From IMG/VR virus record IMGVR_UViG_3300030328_002316, positions 1 through 45,698 of that record: a DNA stretch of 45,698 nt; one strand, written 5' to 3'. The stretch comes from a virus. Below are positions 1 to 33,394 of the stretch, one piece after another. The translations under genes were made by a program, and so were the position numbers. Position 1 is the first letter of the stretch, and each line of letters opens with the position of its first letter. Below the pieces are notes generated by a model, which saw nothing but the letters and a program-made list of their open reading frames with translations, was not told the origin of the DNA and did not search any database.

Positions 1-1073
1 AAAGCCGCTATTCCTCTTGCCATTTGGTAGGCTTTCTTTTGCGCTTCCATTCGTTTAATCGTATCCTCAATAACCGCTTTGCCTGTTTTGCGATAGACCA
101 AAATAGGTGATTGGCTGCACAAGCAATTAATTGATTCGCCTCGCTTACTGTAAAATTCTTCCACTTCCTGCTGTGTGAATATTCCGCCATGTTTCGACAC
201 GTGATTCGGGCGACTTGTAGCGGCCAGCGCACTAAACCATAACTGGCGGAAAATAAAACCACTATCATCAAACACAGTTTCATTTATATCTTTTGTTTTA
301 GCTCTCTGTGCTGCCCTGTAAGCGCCTAAAATCTCAGTACGTGCGATTCGTTGCGCTCGACTAAAACCAACGCCTACACGCTTAACTACGTCCGCAGAAA
401 TGGCGCGAATGCCTAAACCATCAGCCATGCCGCGCGTTAACGTTTCTGACAGGTCAACTTTCATTGATTCAGTTAAACCTTTCATTTCATTAAATACGCG
501 ACCGTAAACTAAACCTAATGATTGTGTTGATTGCGGGTTAAATTCATCGTTAGTAATTGCTGGTATTTGTCGCGCTAATTCATCGCCTACTAATTCAGGT
601 GTTGATTGGCTTTGTATGTCACGTATTGCGTCATTAACCCCATCATTATAAGCGCTAGATAAATACGACTGAAAAAACCAATTGGGCGGTTTGTTGCCGG
701 TGTAAGTTTCTAGCAACTCAGTATAAAGCAACCTTTCAATAAATGAGTTAATCGAATCGTAACGCGCTAAGTCTATTTGGTATTCGTAGTAAGTCGTCTT
801 GTTTACGGCAACACTTGACCTGTGAGTATCTAGCTCGCCTTTTGTGTTTGTGAAATATACAAGCGGATGCCATACCGTTGAAGTTGAAGAATTAGCCGCT
901 GCAACTGTGCGATATTCTGATTGCTCAGCAACTAGTGAGCGCATACCTTTTGATATGCGCTCGAATCGTCTTTTTAATTCACGCTGCTCACGGCTTAAAT
1001 TGCTTTTTTGATGCGCCGGGTCTGCTGCATCTTTTGGAATTACAGGCCCGTTTTTAATCTGTCTTATTTTCAT
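1..1073 (-). CDS. MuF/SPP1 gp7-like head morphogenesis protein (runs off left edge; stop at 45599-45601)
   Basis: Read on the minus strand from an ATG at 1073-1071, the frame stays open to base 1. In the terminal repeat at the right end the same frame meets TGA at 45601-45599, giving 357 residues on a circular map. The C-terminal third has the family signature: ARTEILGAYRAAQ, then HVSKHGGIFTQQEVEEFY and NCLCSQSPI, the conserved His/Gly and Cys-x-Cys region of Mu gpF/SPP1 gp7 proteins. These minor head proteins act with the portal during procapsid assembly or are ejected with DNA. The start overlaps the end of the portal gene by 20 bases, so translation is probably coupled. Product call is by motif and by position after the portal. 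Base 1 (a) differs from the matching base 45600 (c), which matters only for the stop codon. Confidence 0.85.
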   Translation of the reverse strand, partial: MKIRQIKNGPVIPKDAADPAHQKSNLSREQRELKRRFERISKGMRSLVAEQSEYRTVAAANSSTSTVWHPLVYFTNTKGELDTHRSSVAVNKTTYYEYQIDLARYDSINSFIERLLYTELLETYTGNKPPNWFFQSYLSSAYNDGVNDAIRDIQSQSTPELVGDELARQIPAITNDEFNPQSTQSLGLVYGRVFNEMKGLTESMKVDLSETLTRGMADGLGIRAISADVVKRVGVGFSRAQRIARTEILGAYRAAQRAKTKDINETVFDDSGFIFRQLWFSALAATSRPNHVSKHGGIFTQQEVEEFYSKRGESINCLCSQSPILVYRKTGKAVIEDTIKRMEAQKKAYQMARGIAA

Positions 1074-2433
1074 TAGGCTCATCATCCAATGTTAATTCGT
1101 CTTTTGGCATTTCAAGCTCGTATTGTGTTGCTGGCTTATCTTTATCCGCCCCACCTGCTTCGCGTATTTCTTCCGTTGTCCATGGCGCTTCTTCTCGCGC
1201 ATCGTATGCGGTTTTATTATCTTCAATCATCGACTTTGAGTTAGCAAGCTTTTCAGATTTGCTAGGCTCTGAAATATCAGGCCAAACTACATTAATACTT
1301 CCATTGCTAGGCGCTGGCAATAAGCCAAGCTCAACAAACCATTCATATATTGAAATCATTCTAGGGCCAAACTCATTAGTCTGTTTTGACTTTAGGTATT
1401 TATTTAAGCCCTTTGAGTTTTCCTCGCTTGAGCGCTCACCCGTCATAAAGCCGATCATTTCAGTCATTGGCACTTCATCAGATGCAAACGCTTCTTGTAA
1501 TGCAATATTAAAAGCGCCAGTTGGATCGGCTAGATTTGACTGCAAGGTGTAAACTTTTGAGCCACCAAGCTTTAAATAGTTATTTATGCCATTTTCAAAG
1601 TCGTCAATGGATTGGTCTATCTCTTCCTTTTTAGCTCCCATTGCTTGAATAGCTTTAGGGTCATCAGCGCTCATTACTGTGCGTTGCTTAGCGTTTTTGC
1701 GTGAACCTTCGGCAGATGAGCCGCGTATTTTATTTGCATCAAACAGAGCATTAAACGGCGCTTCCAGCACAGGTGTACCTTCAATTTGCGCGCCTACTGC
1801 GTTAGTTACAACGAATACACGCGAGCGGTGTATTTTCATTTGCTCGGCGTTTGTTGTAGTCCTATCACCTAACGCAGCAGGATTTAACTCATAATACTTT
1901 GGCTTATTCCAATCCTTATCAAAGTAATCGCTAACGTAATCAGTAGTGCCCTCACATTCAACTTGGTAAAACGGATTAATAGCAACTAAGCCACTGACTC
2001 GACCTATTTCATCAGTTAACTTTTTCTTCTCACGCTCTTTAAATACAGGAACAATAGTGGCGTAATTGCCAACCCTAGCGTATTTCTCAGCTTCTTTGAT
2101 GACATTAAATAGCTTAAACTTTTTATTTAAATCATCTACAGCCTTTTCAAATGCCGTGGGAGTTTTACCGCGAGTATCTGCATCACCATCAATAATAGTT
2201 GGATTTTCAATAAAGCATCGGTTAACTACTTTATTAATCATAGCCTTTGCAAAGCCGTTACGCTTATGCAGGTTATACATATGCTCAAATGTTACATTGT
2301 CAGGATAACCATACGATTTAGAGTCATCGCGGTTTGTATCGCCAAAGTTAACAGGCGCAGAAAATAAGTGATTCATATTCCTTCGGTGGCCCATATTTGC
2401 CGCAAAGGTTTTGTTTAGGTAATTTTTAGACAT
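1054..2433 (-). CDS. Portal protein, DUF1073-like
   Basis: 459 residues, a usual portal length. The N-terminal part (FEHMYNLHKRNGFAKAMINKVV) resembles the start of DUF1073-type portals, where the incoming helix is followed by a long mixed domain and a helical crown; the acidic C-terminus (LTLDDEPNENKTD) is also typical. It would form the dodecameric ring at the packaging vertex and dock the terminase. The MuF-like gene follows with a 20-base overlap, the classical portal-MuF pair, but both are on the minus strand and far from terminase and capsid genes. The ATG directly follows the T-run of a terminator and has no good ribosome binding site. An internal ATG at residue 20 has GAAGGA just before it, but the spacing is short. 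So the start is uncertain. Confidence 0.8.
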   Translation of the reverse strand: MSKNYLNKTFAANMGHRRNMNHLFSAPVNFGDTNRDDSKSYGYPDNVTFEHMYNLHKRNGFAKAMINKVVNRCFIENPTIIDGDADTRGKTPTAFEKAVDDLNKKFKLFNVIKEAEKYARVGNYATIVPVFKEREKKKLTDEIGRVSGLVAINPFYQVECEGTTDYVSDYFDKDWNKPKYYELNPAALGDRTTTNAEQMKIHRSRVFVVTNAVGAQIEGTPVLEAPFNALFDANKIRGSSAEGSRKNAKQRTVMSADDPKAIQAMGAKKEEIDQSIDDFENGINNYLKLGGSKVYTLQSNLADPTGAFNIALQEAFASDEVPMTEMIGFMTGERSSEENSKGLNKYLKSKQTNEFGPRMISIYEWFVELGLLPAPSNGSINVVWPDISEPSKSEKLANSKSMIEDNKTAYDAREEAPWTTEEIREAGGADKDKPATQYELEMPKDELTLDDEPNENKTD

Positions 2434-2463
2434 AAAAAAGCCACACGTTAAGAGTATGGCTTT
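2434..2463 (-). terminator. Intrinsic terminator abutting the portal start codon
   Basis: On the minus strand AAAGCCATAC (2463-2454) pairs with GTGTGGCTTT (2446-2437) in 10 base pairs including one G-T, followed by a run of T to 2434. The portal ATG begins at 2433. It would end leftward transcripts of the 6042-2494 unit unless they are antiterminated. Confidence 0.75.
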
Positions 2464-2472
2464 ATTGTATCA
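2464..2472 (-). promoter_or_regulatory. Late-type extended -10 promoter for portal operon (TGA-TACAAT)
   Basis: Minus-strand TGATACAAT lies 31 bases before the portal ATG and directly against the 5' arm of the terminator at 2434-2463. Predicted initiation near 2457 falls inside that arm. The same motif is found before the other structural operons of this genome. Confidence 0.6.
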
Positions 2473-15217: not shown

Positions 15218-15226
15218 TGTTATAAT
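15218..15226 (+). promoter_or_regulatory. Late-type extended -10 promoter before terminase (TGT-TATAAT)
   Basis: TGTTATAAT ends 36 bases before the terminase small subunit start. No -35 match is evident at 16-18 bases. Confidence 0.65.
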
Positions 15227-19892: not shown

Positions 19893-20073
19893 AGAAGGCA
19901 ATCCGAATCACGAAGAAAGCGTTTTAGTAATGACTCAGGATAAAACAATCATTCAAGGTCGATTTTATGCTGATGAAGATGATTTTTACACTGAATATGG
20001 AGATTTGATTGATGCGCTAGGTTATGCTGATATGCCATCAATAACTTGGGATTACAACATTAAAAAACTTTAG
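19882..20073 (+). CDS. Hypothetical 63-residue protein
   Basis: ATG 19882 with GAGGGG upstream. Acidic, aromatic (QGRFYADEDDFYTEYGDLID); ends ITWDYNIKKL. Weakly reminiscent of DUF551-like phage proteins. Longer frames start inside the upstream gene and are rejected. Confidence 0.5.
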   Translation: MLFKEGNPNHEESVLVMTQDKTIIQGRFYADEDDFYTEYGDLIDALGYADMPSITWDYNIKKL

Positions 20074-20082
20074 GGGTTATTA

Positions 20083-20226
20083 ATGAATGAATTTTACAAA
20101 CAGCAAATAGAAAAGCTTAAAGACAAAGTTATTGCACATGCTAAACTTGGTAATGAGTTAAAGGTAGCTATGCTTGAGAAAGAGATAGCTAATTATGAGA
20201 AATCTTTGAAAGGTAATAGGGGTTAG
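20083..20226 (+). CDS. 47-residue helical protein
   Basis: ATG 20083, TAGGGG upstream. MNEFYKQQIEKLKDKVIAHA then KLGNELKVAMLEKEIANYEK is a coiled-coil-like helix. No family recognised. Confidence 0.5.
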   Translation: MNEFYKQQIEKLKDKVIAHAKLGNELKVAMLEKEIANYEKSLKGNRG

Positions 20227-20227
20227 T

Positions 20228-20416
20228 ATGGCTGCCGTTAAATTAATAGCAAACCGAGATGCAATCAGGTTAATACTTGATTCGCTTGGTCTGAATGATG
20301 AATGTATAACTTCACTATCAATAAATGGTAAGGAAATTATAAATCTGGAAAACTTAAATGAAAATATAGAAATAACAGTTTCAAGGTTGATAGTTAACAA
20401 GGGTGCAGGAGGTTAG
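20228..20416 (+). CDS. Hypothetical 62-residue protein
   Basis: AATAGGGG precedes the ATG closely. Sequence KLIANRDAIRLILDSLGLND and EIINLENLNENIEITVSRLI suggests an alpha-beta unit. No family recognised. Confidence 0.45.
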   Translation: MAAVKLIANRDAIRLILDSLGLNDECITSLSINGKEIINLENLNENIEITVSRLIVNKGAGG

Positions 20417-20417
20417 T

Positions 20418-20621
20418 ATGGCAATGGTTGTTACTTATTTTTATTCAGGTGCAATAGTTGGCACAATGCTAAAAGGCGGAATTAGAGATGTAAAGCATTT
20501 TGACGGGTCTGTAACTGTGGAGCCTGACGTTAGTGTTGATGATGTTATTTATGAAATAAAGAGTAAGCACTCGTACAAAAATACTAAGATGGCTCATATT
20601 AGGCAGCTAAACAGAATTTAA
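20418..20621 (+). CDS. Hypothetical 67-residue protein
   Basis: Start at ATG 20418, which has AGGAGG upstream; a longer frame would start before that site. The first 20 residues are mildly hydrophobic, the rest mixed. Last gene of cassette A before the capsid operon. Confidence 0.5.
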   Translation: MAMVVTYFYSGAIVGTMLKGGIRDVKHFDGSVTVEPDVSVDDVIYEIKSKHSYKNTKMAHIRQLNRI

Positions 20622-20647
20622 CCAAACTAACACGCAAATAAAATAAA

Positions 20648-20656
20648 TGATACAAT
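20648..20656 (+). promoter_or_regulatory. Late-type extended -10 promoter for capsid operon (TGA-TACAAT)
   Basis: TGATACAAT ends 30 bases before the ATG at 20686 and one base before the terminator stem. Initiation expected near 20663 would fall within the 5' arm of that stem. Confidence 0.65.
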
Positions 20657-20657
20657 T

Positions 20658-20685
20658 AGCCCTATAGCAACTATGGGGCTTTTTT
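20658..20685 (+). terminator. Intrinsic terminator abutting the protease/scaffold start codon
   Basis: AGCCCTATAG, loop CAA, CTATGGGGCT (10 base pairs, one T-G) and TTTTTT, with the ATG of the next gene following at once. It should stop transcripts from cassette A. Confidence 0.85.
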
Positions 20686-21813
20686 ATGCGTGTAATACTC
20701 ACCACAAATACAAATAAAACGTCAGTCAAAAAGGCTGATGGTAAATATCAAATTAGCGGCATTCCTGTGACTGTCGATAATGCAATCATGAATGGCTTTA
20801 AATATACGGCGGAAGAAAACGCTAAGGGCATGAAAACCTTAAATGGCATGCCTATGGCTTTGACTCATCCTGCCGATGAGGATGGGCGCAATGTGTCTAT
20901 CTTCTCACCTGATGGCATTGACTTCTACTCTGGCGGCAAAGTAACCAGCACTTACAATAAAGACGGTGTTTGGTACGCTGATTCTGAAATTGACGAAAAG
21001 AGACTAAAGGCAACTGAGCAAGGTGAATACTTTGCTAATCGTCTTGATAATGGCTTGCCTATTGGTGTCAGCACAGGCTTAACATTTGAAGCTAACAACA
21101 AGTCAGGTGATGGCTACAAGATGGAGGCGATTAATCAGTCGTACGACCACCTTGCTATGCTGCATGATTCAGAGCGACCTGCGGGTGGCGATTCTACCGT
21201 TATGCGCTTTAATGGTGAGGACGTATCAGTAATTAATATTGATGATATTGAAAAGCCAAAACCAACAGGGCCAGAGAATGAATTAATCATTCAAGATAAT
21301 TTTATTGACAAAGTAGCAAACAAGCTAAAGGCGCTTTTTGCTAACGATAACCAAAACAGTTACAATAACACTGATTTAAACACAAACCACGAGGCTCCTA
21401 TTATGGATCGTACTGAAATGCTCGAAGCGCTAGGCTTAGCTACTAATAGCCAAGTCACAGACGATGAGCTTAAAACACTAATGAAATCTAAGCTCGCCGC
21501 AAACGCTAGTGAGGGTTTTAGTAAGGAAGATGTTGTAGAAATCGTTAACTCTGCAATTAAACCTTTAGCCGACCAACTAACTGCAAACGCTGAGCAAGAG
21601 CTTGACTCTATCGCTGAGCAAGTTGAAGCGCTTAAAATGGGTATTAACAAAGACTCTGCAAAAGCTATGGGCTTAGATGCTGCTAAATCATTCTTAGCTG
21701 CTAACTCTGCTGAATATGTTGCAAGCGGTTATGTAGCGCCTCAGAAGCGTGCATCTCAAACTAATTCAGAAGATGACGGCGTTTACCGTTCTTCTAAACC
21801 ATTCGCATCATAA
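20686..21813 (+). CDS. Prohead protease/scaffold, DUF2213 family
   Basis: 375 residues. The N-terminal 190 are DUF2213: SGIPVTVDNAIMNGFKYTAEE, LNGMPMALTHPADEDG, GVWYADSEIDEKRL, GLPIGVSTGLTFEAN, YDHLAMLHDSERPAGGD. These proteins occupy the prohead-protease slot and are thought to process the capsid. The C-terminal part is Ala/Glu-rich and coiled, as in a scaffold, and has its own in-frame start at 21403. No ribosome binding site of usual form precedes the first ATG, only the GGGGC and T-run of the terminator. Confidence 0.82.
   Translation: MRVILTTNTNKTSVKKADGKYQISGIPVTVDNAIMNGFKYTAEENAKGMKTLNGMPMALTHPADEDGRNVSIFSPDGIDFYSGGKVTSTYNKDGVWYADSEIDEKRLKATEQGEYFANRLDNGLPIGVSTGLTFEANNKSGDGYKMEAINQSYDHLAMLHDSERPAGGDSTVMRFNGEDVSVINIDDIEKPKPTGPENELIIQDNFIDKVANKLKALFANDNQNSYNNTDLNTNHEAPIMDRTEMLEALGLATNSQVTDDELKTLMKSKLAANASEGFSKEDVVEIVNSAIKPLADQLTANAEQELDSIAEQVEALKMGINKDSAKAMGLDAAKSFLAANSAEYVASGYVAPQKRASQTNSEDDGVYRSSKPFAS
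21403..21813 (+). CDS. Nested in-frame scaffold protein (internal start)
   Basis: ATG 21403 (codon 240 of the DUF2213 gene) has GAGG eight bases upstream and begins MDRTEMLEALGLATNSQVTD, a domain start. The 136-residue product would be a free scaffold, as with lambda Nu3 inside C. This is inference from the site and domain border. Confidence 0.5.
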   Translation: MDRTEMLEALGLATNSQVTDDELKTLMKSKLAANASEGFSKEDVVEIVNSAIKPLADQLTANAEQELDSIAEQVEALKMGINKDSAKAMGLDAAKSFLAANSAEYVASGYVAPQKRASQTNSEDDGVYRSSKPFAS

Positions 21814-21824
21814 GGGGCTAACTC

Positions 21825-22274
21825 ATGGCAGCGGGAAAAAATAGTATTTTTGTTGGCGGCGTTGGTCGCATCAAGCAAACAATCGAAGGCGTTGCGCAAT
21901 CTGCGTTTAAGCCGGGTCAATTACTTGCGCGTGCAGTTGGTGATGCAGCTGACGTAACAAGCAAGGCGGCAACAACTTTCGGTAATGAATTTTTAATTTG
22001 TGATGACCAAGCGGCTACAGTTGGCGGTTCAACGTCTACACCTGTAACGGTAGGTGACACGATTAAAGCAATCAACGTTAACAGCGGTGATTTAGTGTTG
22101 CTTTCATTTGCAAACACTCAAAACGTCACAACTAAAGGTTTAGCTGTTGCATCTAATGGCGATGGTGATTTTAAACTTGCAGCTACTGACGGTACTGAGC
22201 AAGTATTCGCGGTAACAGAAGAAGTTATCAACGTAACAGCCGCCGGCACTCTTGTGCTTTGTCGCGCAATTTAA
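21825..22274 (+). CDS. Capsid decoration-like protein (DUF2190-like)
   Basis: 149 residues, Ala/Thr/Val rich, beta. FKPGQLLARAVGDAADVTSK, GNEFLICDDQ, GDTIKAINVNSGDLVLL and ALVLCRAI-like end resemble small head-decoration/cement proteins placed between protease and major capsid genes. It would trim the capsid surface and stabilise it. Call rests on composition, length and position. Confidence 0.6.
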   Translation: MAAGKNSIFVGGVGRIKQTIEGVAQSAFKPGQLLARAVGDAADVTSKAATTFGNEFLICDDQAATVGGSTSTPVTVGDTIKAINVNSGDLVLLSFANTQNVTTKGLAVASNGDGDFKLAATDGTEQVFAVTEEVINVTAAGTLVLCRAI

Positions 22275-22284
22275 GGGGTAAATG

Positions 22285-23352
22285 ATGAGCATTTATTTTG
22301 ATAGTAAAAAAGGCGCAACAGGCAAAGAGCTGTTTGCACTAAATAAACAATGGGATGAGCTTTCATACTTCCGTCAAGCTGGTGCTGCTGACTCAGTTAA
22401 GCTGCTTGATGGCTTAGGTGAAACTTTTGGCATTAACAAAGCTAAAGACGGCTTAACAGTTAACAACCTGCGCGTTGATGAAATGTATCGCATGGTTGAT
22501 GGTACTGCTACTGGTGAAGATCGTGATTGGGGTAATCAAACTCTATTAGGTCGCTTAATGGCTGGCGCTCAAACTGTAAATATAGGTAAAAAAGTTGTTG
22601 AGTCTCGCCGCTACAGTGAGGCTGGTCGAGTTACTCGTTCAATGTCTGGTCAAACTGACATCCAAATGGATAAAACAGAAAGCAACTACCAAAAGACAGT
22701 TATCCCAATCTTTGACGCTGGTTACGGTCGTGATTTCCGCGATGTTGAAGCTATGCGCTCAGAGCTATTGCCAGCACTTGCAGAAGATTCACAAGAAATT
22801 GAGTTTTCATTGCTTGAAGATGTAAATGATTACTTGTGGAATGGTGATGCAGGTTTAGTTGTTGATGGCACTAGTTGGTCAGGTGTTAAGTCTGATACAA
22901 GCATTGCTTCATACACGCTGTTAACTGACTTAACTACTGCTACTGCGAAAGAAACAACAGATGAGCTTTTAGCTGTAATTGATGTGTTACGTATTAACAA
23001 TGATAAATCTGGCCCTTTTGATTTATTCGTATCGCCTCAAATTATGTCTCACATGCAGTCTTTAGCAACTGAAAATACAAGTGGCTTTATGAATATCTTG
23101 TTGGCTGTGCGTGCGTTAATCCCTGAGTTTGCTACAATTCAGGTTGACGCTAAGCTGCAAGGTAATCAAGTGTTTGCTTCTGTAATTGGCACTCAAGGCT
23201 TGCACGCTAAAGTTGGTATGATGATGTCTAGCTACCAAATGCCACGCTTTAAGCATAACGACCCTTACCAATTTGTTAAATGGTTTGCTGCTGGCTTCCA
23301 GTCTAAAAACACATTTAGCGGTAAGAAGTCATCAGTTTACGCATCATCTTAA
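22285..23352 (+). CDS. Major capsid protein
   Basis: 355 residues. Two adjacent ATGs (22282, 22285) follow AAGGGG; the second has the better spacing. The sequence (RVDEMYRMVDGTATGEDRDW, YQKTVIPIFDAGYGRDFRDV, FDLFVSPQIMSHMQSLATE, QGLHAKVGMMMSSYQMPRF) looks like an encapsulin-like HK97-fold major capsid of the group that accompanies DUF2213 proteins. It directly follows the protease/scaffold and decoration genes. Confidence 0.82.
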   Translation: MSIYFDSKKGATGKELFALNKQWDELSYFRQAGAADSVKLLDGLGETFGINKAKDGLTVNNLRVDEMYRMVDGTATGEDRDWGNQTLLGRLMAGAQTVNIGKKVVESRRYSEAGRVTRSMSGQTDIQMDKTESNYQKTVIPIFDAGYGRDFRDVEAMRSELLPALAEDSQEIEFSLLEDVNDYLWNGDAGLVVDGTSWSGVKSDTSIASYTLLTDLTTATAKETTDELLAVIDVLRINNDKSGPFDLFVSPQIMSHMQSLATENTSGFMNILLAVRALIPEFATIQVDAKLQGNQVFASVIGTQGLHAKVGMMMSSYQMPRFKHNDPYQFVKWFAAGFQSKNTFSGKKSSVYASS

Positions 23353-23597: not shown

Positions 23598-23615
23598 TTT
23601 AACTTGCTAAATAAA

Positions 23616-23640
23616 GCCCTGCCATTGTGCAGGGTTTTTT
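23616..23640 (+). terminator. Intrinsic terminator after capsid genes
   Basis: CCCTGC (23617-23622), loop CATTGT, GCAGGG (23629-23634), TTTTTT. It ends the capsid operon before a new late promoter. Confidence 0.85.
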
Positions 23641-23669
23641 ATGCCTATAGCGCGATAAAAATCTTAGCA

Positions 23670-33317: not shown

Positions 33318-33394
33318 CAGGATGTAGCTCAGCTTGGTAGAGTAGCTCGTTTGGAACGAGGCGGTCATAGGTTCAAATCCTATCATCCTGACCA
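33318..33394 (+). tRNA. tRNA-Pro (UGG)
   Basis: 77 bases with encoded CCA. Acceptor CAGGATG/CATCCTG, C1-G72 and A73 as in bacterial tRNA-Pro, D-loop AGCTTGGTA, anticodon loop TTTGGAA with TGG at 33352-33354, T-arm ATAGG-TTCAAAT-CCTAT. One mismatch (G-G) closes the anticodon stem. It reads CCA and, by wobble, other Pro codons. Confidence 0.92.

What the first reader, a model, noticed from the sequence alone, without database searches (positions are those of the whole stretch)
20648..20686. Late promoter embedded in a terminator whose T-run ends at the start codon (capsid operon)
TGATACAAT is one base before a 10-bp stem (20658-20680) plus TTTTTT, and the next base begins the ATG of the protease/scaffold gene. 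A transcript starting about 7 bases after the -10 would begin inside the 5' arm and could not form the full stem, while read-through RNA from cassette A would. One short element would thus both insulate and start the capsid operon. The same design is found at the portal gene, which argues against chance. It also leaves only GGGGC and U-rich sequence as the translation signal.
Basis: partly seen in the sequence, partly recalled or inferred. Interest (0 to 1): 0.75.

Follow-up and report, generated by a model that had tools for sequence, protein, structure and literature searches.

The report
Hairpin gating phage head-gene start sites
In a marine phage, a 39-base element in front of the capsid operon (and again before the portal gene) appears to act as terminator, promoter and ribosome-site lock at once, so only RNA started at its own promoter should be translated; the same layout recurs before genes of many other phages.

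Summary
TGATACAAT (20648-20656), a 10-bp stem with a CAA loop (20658-20680), TTTTTT (20680-20685) and ATG (20686) sit exactly as described, and the portal gene has a twin on the minus strand (2472-2433). No full copy appeared in 200 shuffles of the window; the real window has two. The layout is conserved at the DUF2213 and portal starts of Pseudoalteromonas phages H40/1, XCL1123, H103, TW1 and C7, and at the DUF2213 start (portal less so) of Vibrio phages pYD21-A and LP.1. The stem covaries. In viral contigs the same layout precedes genes of about 31 protein families. When the predicted RNA start falls inside the hairpin, the ATG opens a gene in 63 of 79 cases, against 7 of 42 when it falls upstream. 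Read-through RNA should therefore terminate or hide its ribosome site, while RNA from the local promoter lacks the 5' arm and exposes it. This is the start-site logic known from T4 genes e, soc, 49 and I-TevI, fused here to an intrinsic terminator and placed on head operons: a new, apparently widespread variant of a known kind. No RNA ends were measured, and 'late' timing is untested.

The parts
20625..20635 (+). -35-region box, this copy of the family consensus AAATAGCCCRCC, 17 nt before TACAAT
   Evidence: T at -23, A at -22, C at -20 and -18 over-represented in 26 element promoters
20648..20656 (+). extended -10 TGATACAAT
20663..20664 (+). predicted transcription start (7-8 nt after the -10), inside the 5' arm
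   Evidence: inference from -10 geometry; leader of 22-23 nt
20658..20667 (+). 5' arm of hairpin AGCCCTATAG; the outer 5-6 nt are absent from the local transcript
   Evidence: covariation
20671..20680 (+). 3' arm CTATGGGGCT carrying the Shine-Dalgarno GGGG
20680..20685 (+). T6 tract: U-tract of the terminator and spacer to the start codon
20686..21813 (+). DUF2213-type head gene (phrog_760), 375 aa, first gene of the capsid operon
   Evidence: orthologue annotated DUF2213 in H40/1
21825..23352 (+). head decoration (21825-22274) and major capsid/virion structural protein (22282-23352), rest of the operon
2464..2472 (-). extended -10 TGATACAAT of the portal copy
2434..2463 (-). portal copy: AAAGCCATAC / GTGTGGCTTT stem, 7-nt loop, T6 ending at the ATG
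1054..2433 (-). portal protein gene (phrog_146, Phage_portal_3)

Best explanation
The element is a promoter nested in an intrinsic terminator whose 3' arm is the ribosome-binding site. RNA polymerase arriving from the upstream co-directional genes makes the whole hairpin plus U6 and mostly stops just before the AUG. Any RNA that slips through carries the Shine-Dalgarno inside a stem of about -11 to -14 kcal/mol and is poorly translated. RNA polymerase starting at the local extended -10 begins 7-8 nt downstream, inside the 5' arm, so it cannot rebuild the stem. It passes the U6 without terminating and leaves GGGGC free, with U6 as the spacer to AUG. Head genes are thus made only from their own promoter, whatever the upstream cassette does. 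Shown here: the anatomy, its conservation and covariation, and predicted folding. Inferred: the RNA 5' and 3' ends, termination efficiency, the translation block and the timing.
For: The composite is absent from shuffles. In six complete Pseudoalteromonas phage genomes (window included) and Vibrio LP.1, every TAYAAT-hairpin-T4+-start-codon composite that opens an ORF longer than 2 codons sits at a head gene: DUF2213, portal, or the C7 minor head gene. Protein-selected relatives, not chosen for the hairpin: 11 of 17 distinct DUF2213 starts and 8 of 11 distinct portal starts carry the strict design. pYD21-A and LP.1 DUF2213 fail only on the spacing or -10 threshold. Stem pairs 4-7 change on both sides while staying paired. 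Predicted start inside the hairpin: ORF in 63/79, against 7/42 upstream of it (Fisher 1.7e-11; by protein family 31/47 against 7/42, 4e-6). P(SD unpaired) averages 0.05 in long RNA and 0.39 in TSS RNA, rising in 48 of 49. 3' arms pair better with anti-SD than the same 12-mer at non-genes (-5.7 against -3.7, p=6.6e-5). In Vibrio 1.210 the T-run is gone but the -10 lies in the loop of a hairpin whose 3' arm holds the SD.
Against: No RNA data. The local SDs are weak (-4.7 and -2.4 kcal/mol against a phage gene median of -6.25). Relatives L009 and L011 keep the promoter and GGGGCTTTTATG or GGGAGCTTTTATG but have no hairpin, so the lock is dispensable in some phages. If the real start is only 5 nt after the -10, about 6 bp of the portal stem survive. 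The IMG/VR rows were selected by a pattern containing GGCTTTTTTATG.
Confidence: 0.7

Rival explanations
1. Compaction only: an ordinary terminator of the upstream operon and an ordinary promoter of the next happen to overlap to save space. The hairpin has no effect on translation.
For: Phage genomes are compact. Terminator 3' arms in these phages are often GGGC anyway, and a T-rich spacer is harmless (examples).
Against: The 3' arms at genes have better anti-SD complementarity than the same 12-mer at non-genes. Vibrio 1.210 lost the T-run but keeps a promoter nested in an SD-pairing hairpin. In a few IMG/VR loci the -10 sits in the loop rather than before the stem, and the ATG is still a gene.
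Confidence: 0.2
2. Attenuator: transcripts from upstream form the hairpin, and a phage antiterminator lets them into the head operon late. The TACAAT is not a promoter.
For: A terminator directly before a late operon is the classic antitermination geometry (layout).
Against: The extended -10 is conserved at a fixed 32-36 nt from ATG with a shared -35-region box. The -10 stays when the hairpin is lost (L009, L011).
Confidence: 0.07
3. DNA operator: the palindrome is a repressor or activator site over +1, read as DNA.
For: Perfect inverted repeats at +1 can be operators (stem).
Against: Arm sequence varies while pairing is kept, including U.G pairs that break DNA symmetry. The T6 and ATG are fixed on one side only.
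Confidence: 0.03

Closest known systems
T4 genes e (lysozyme), soc, 49 and I-TevI, with segB and phage Aeh1 mobE: RBS-sequestering hairpins with embedded late promoters (PMC3014915, PMC2988022)
   Same: Long upstream RNA hides the RBS in a stem; a promoter just before the gene starts RNA inside the 5' arm and frees the RBS.
   Different: T4 hairpins are described as translation locks, not intrinsic terminators, and guard lysis, accessory or homing-endonuclease genes. Here the stem carries a T6 tract abutting AUG, and it guards portal and capsid operons in siphophages with -10 promoters rather than T4 TATAAATA late promoters.
IS10 and IS50 transposase protection from external transcription (recalled, not tested; no paper held stated it)
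   Same: Read-through RNA folds over the RBS; the native promoter starts within the inverted repeat.
   Different: Transposon end sequence, no terminator fused to the start codon.
Ordinary overlapping terminator-promoter pairs between phage operons
   Same: Insulation plus new initiation in a short spacer.
   Different: No requirement that the start lies inside the stem or that the 3' arm is the RBS.

Membership tests
Intrinsic (rho-independent) terminator | GC-containing stem directly followed by a T-run | tested here: met
   10 bp, 5 GC pairs, loop 3, T6; stem energy -14.3 kcal/mol
Intrinsic (rho-independent) terminator | RNA 3' ends at the T-run | not testable with these tools
   no RNA data
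Extended -10 sigma-70-type promoter | TGNTANAAT | tested here: met
Extended -10 sigma-70-type promoter | TTGACA-like -35 at 16-18 nt | tested here: not met
   a different conserved box (AAATAGCCCRCC) sits there; extended -10 promoters can lack a -35, so this does not exclude promoter function
T4 e/soc/I-TevI-type start-site-gated RBS hairpin | SD inside the stem in long RNA | tested here: met
   P(SD unpaired) 0.00
T4 e/soc/I-TevI-type start-site-gated RBS hairpin | local promoter whose RNA lacks the 5' arm | tested here: inconclusive
   predicted from -10 geometry; start not mapped
T4 e/soc/I-TevI-type start-site-gated RBS hairpin | T4-type late promoter TATAAATA served by gp55 | tested here: not met
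   TGATACAAT instead; works like it, is not a homologue
Any Rfam RNA family | covariance-model match | tested here: not met
   none at E<=1 in 20000-21500

The most novel reading that the evidence does not exclude
A general, convergent phage regulatory device: terminator, promoter and ribosome-binding site folded into about 40 nt, used across unrelated phages (head, portal, terminase, endolysin, primase and homing-endonuclease genes) to make a gene deaf to upstream transcription and translated only from its own start site.
Probability: 0.5. Interest if true: 0.75.

Novelty: new variant of a known kind. Interest (0 to 1): 0.62.

Why it matters
It would be a compact, self-insulating gene-start module, useful for annotation (a terminator touching an ATG is not a reason to reject the start) and for genetic design. 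It would also show that start-site-gated translation, known from T4, extends to structural genes of common marine siphophages. The rule is testable in one reporter experiment and one RNA-end map.

Tried and rejected
Simple promoter and terminator counts in the window are at background, so neither part alone is evidence. An extra helix ACACGCA/UGCGUGU over the AUG in the window is not conserved, since H40/1 lacks the 3' partner, and was dropped. U.G against G.U bias in stems relative to ordinary terminators was only suggestive (14:4 against 79:64, p=0.08). Other GGCTTTTTTATG sites with the -10 far upstream mostly open tiny ORFs and are chance. Five literature searches for an overlapping terminator-promoter element found no description of this fused design; the two T4 reviews came. 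The library holds open-licence papers only. The H40/1 genome paper does not mention promoters or terminators.

Full report
WHAT IS THERE. The window is a virus record related to Pseudoalteromonas siphophages. The portal gene carries a second copy on the other strand (2472-2433).

IS IT CHANCE. The -10 motif alone and terminator-like sites alone are at background. The composite is not: a hairpin of at least 7 bp, T5, ATG and an abutting TAYAAT occurred in none of 200 dinucleotide shuffles, and twice in the window. In the complete genomes of H40/1, XCL1123, TW1, C7, H103 and Vibrio LP.1, every TAYAAT-hairpin-T4+-start-codon composite that opens an ORF longer than 2 codons sits at a head gene: DUF2213, portal, or (C7) a minor head gene that follows an annotated DNA methylase. 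One further LP.1 site (40922, minus strand) matches the scan but its start codon opens only 2 codons and is not a gene. DUF2213 and portal homologues picked by protein similarity, not by the motif, show the strict design at 11 of 17 and 8 of 11 distinct starts. LP.1 and pYD21-A DUF2213 miss only because the -10 overlaps the stem or reads TAAAAT.

THE STEM IS UNDER RNA SELECTION. Among DUF2213 starts the three base pairs nearest the foot are fixed, while pairs 4-7 vary and stay paired (C-G, U-G, U-A; A-U, G-C, C-G). In total 109 of 126 cells are paired, against 98.1 +/- 2.4 in shuffles, with 0 of 2000 shuffles reaching the observed value; the portal set behaves alike. Some of those rows come from a hairpin-selected sample and the rows are related, so the number is not a probability.

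THE START SITE RULE. After removing duplicates, when the predicted start (7 nt after the -10) lies inside the hairpin, the ATG opens an ORF of at least 60 aa in 63 of 79 cases (median 171 aa). When it lies upstream of the hairpin the figure is 7 of 42 (median 12 aa); Fisher 1.7e-11. The 63 proteins form 31 sequence families: portal, head morphogenesis, terminase, head-tail adaptor, endolysin, primase, RNA ligase, GIY-YIG and HNH endonucleases among them. Counting families, 31/47 against 7/42 gives p=4e-6. A tighter pattern gave a complete list: in viral contigs 44 of 48 matches open a gene or run to the contig end, while in bacterial and archaeal genomes 7 of 27 do. Two of those seven are truA-like (L301 confirmed by Pfam) and one is slyX. 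In a few loci the -10 is in the loop instead (for example L273), and the ATG is still a gene.

WHY THE 3' ARM MATTERS. GGGGC lies 7-8 nt before the ATG, at normal Shine-Dalgarno spacing, and this phage uses AAGGGG-type sites elsewhere (21825, 22282, 23721). Across the 31 families the 3' arm pairs better with the anti-SD (-5.7) than the identical 12-mer at non-gene ATGs (-3.7; p=6.6e-5). Folding gives a mean SD-unpaired probability of 0.05 in upstream-initiated RNA and 0.39 in locally initiated RNA, higher in 48 of 49 cases. Two kinds of exception are informative. Vibrio 1.210 has no T-run, but its -10 lies in the loop of a hairpin that pairs the SD, which is the pure T4 form. L009 and L011 have no hairpin yet keep the promoter and a G-rich SD followed by CTTTTATG.

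PROMOTER. Element promoters share a box AAATAGCCCRCC 17 nt upstream of the -10, unlike TTGACA. A phage-specific activator is possible. Whether the promoter is late is not shown.

MECHANISM AND STANDING. Best reading: read-through RNA terminates before the AUG or, failing that, hides its SD; local RNA starts inside the 5' arm and escapes both. Shown: anatomy, conservation, covariation, the start-site rule and predicted folds. Inferred: RNA ends, efficiencies and timing. It works like T4 e, soc, 49 and I-TevI but is not homologous, lacks the T4 late promoter, and adds the terminator. I found no paper describing the fused form, within an open-licence library only.

Noticed in passing
window 20625-20635 and about 2490-2481 (minus strand): Conserved box AAATAGCCCRCC 17 nt upstream of the -10 in element promoters of this phage group, not a TTGACA; partial matches also precede the -10s at 15218 and 30331. 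Possible site of a late activator.
   Followed up: partly
L161, L171, L177, L212, L221, L231: GIY-YIG-type homing endonuclease-like genes carry the same promoter-in-terminator start; T4 homing endonucleases (I-TevI, segB) use the terminator-free version of the trick.
   Followed up: partly
L291, L301 (truA-like), L300 (slyX), L286, L299: A few bacterial genes show TATAAT abutting a hairpin whose T-run ends at the ATG; truA-like genes appear twice in gammaproteobacterial MAGs.
   Followed up: partly
window 23611-23645: An ordinary terminator whose T6 is also followed by ATG, with no gene behind it; a useful negative control.
   Followed up: no
L037 (Vibrio phage 1.210.O) 15100-15160: DUF2213 start with the -10 inside the loop of an SD-pairing hairpin and no T-run, with a separate terminator just upstream.
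   Followed up: yes
window 33318-33394: tRNA-Pro (TGG) gene between the connector genes and the tail genes; Vibrio 1.210 has a tRNA-Pro (TGG) just before its DUF2213 gene.
   Followed up: no
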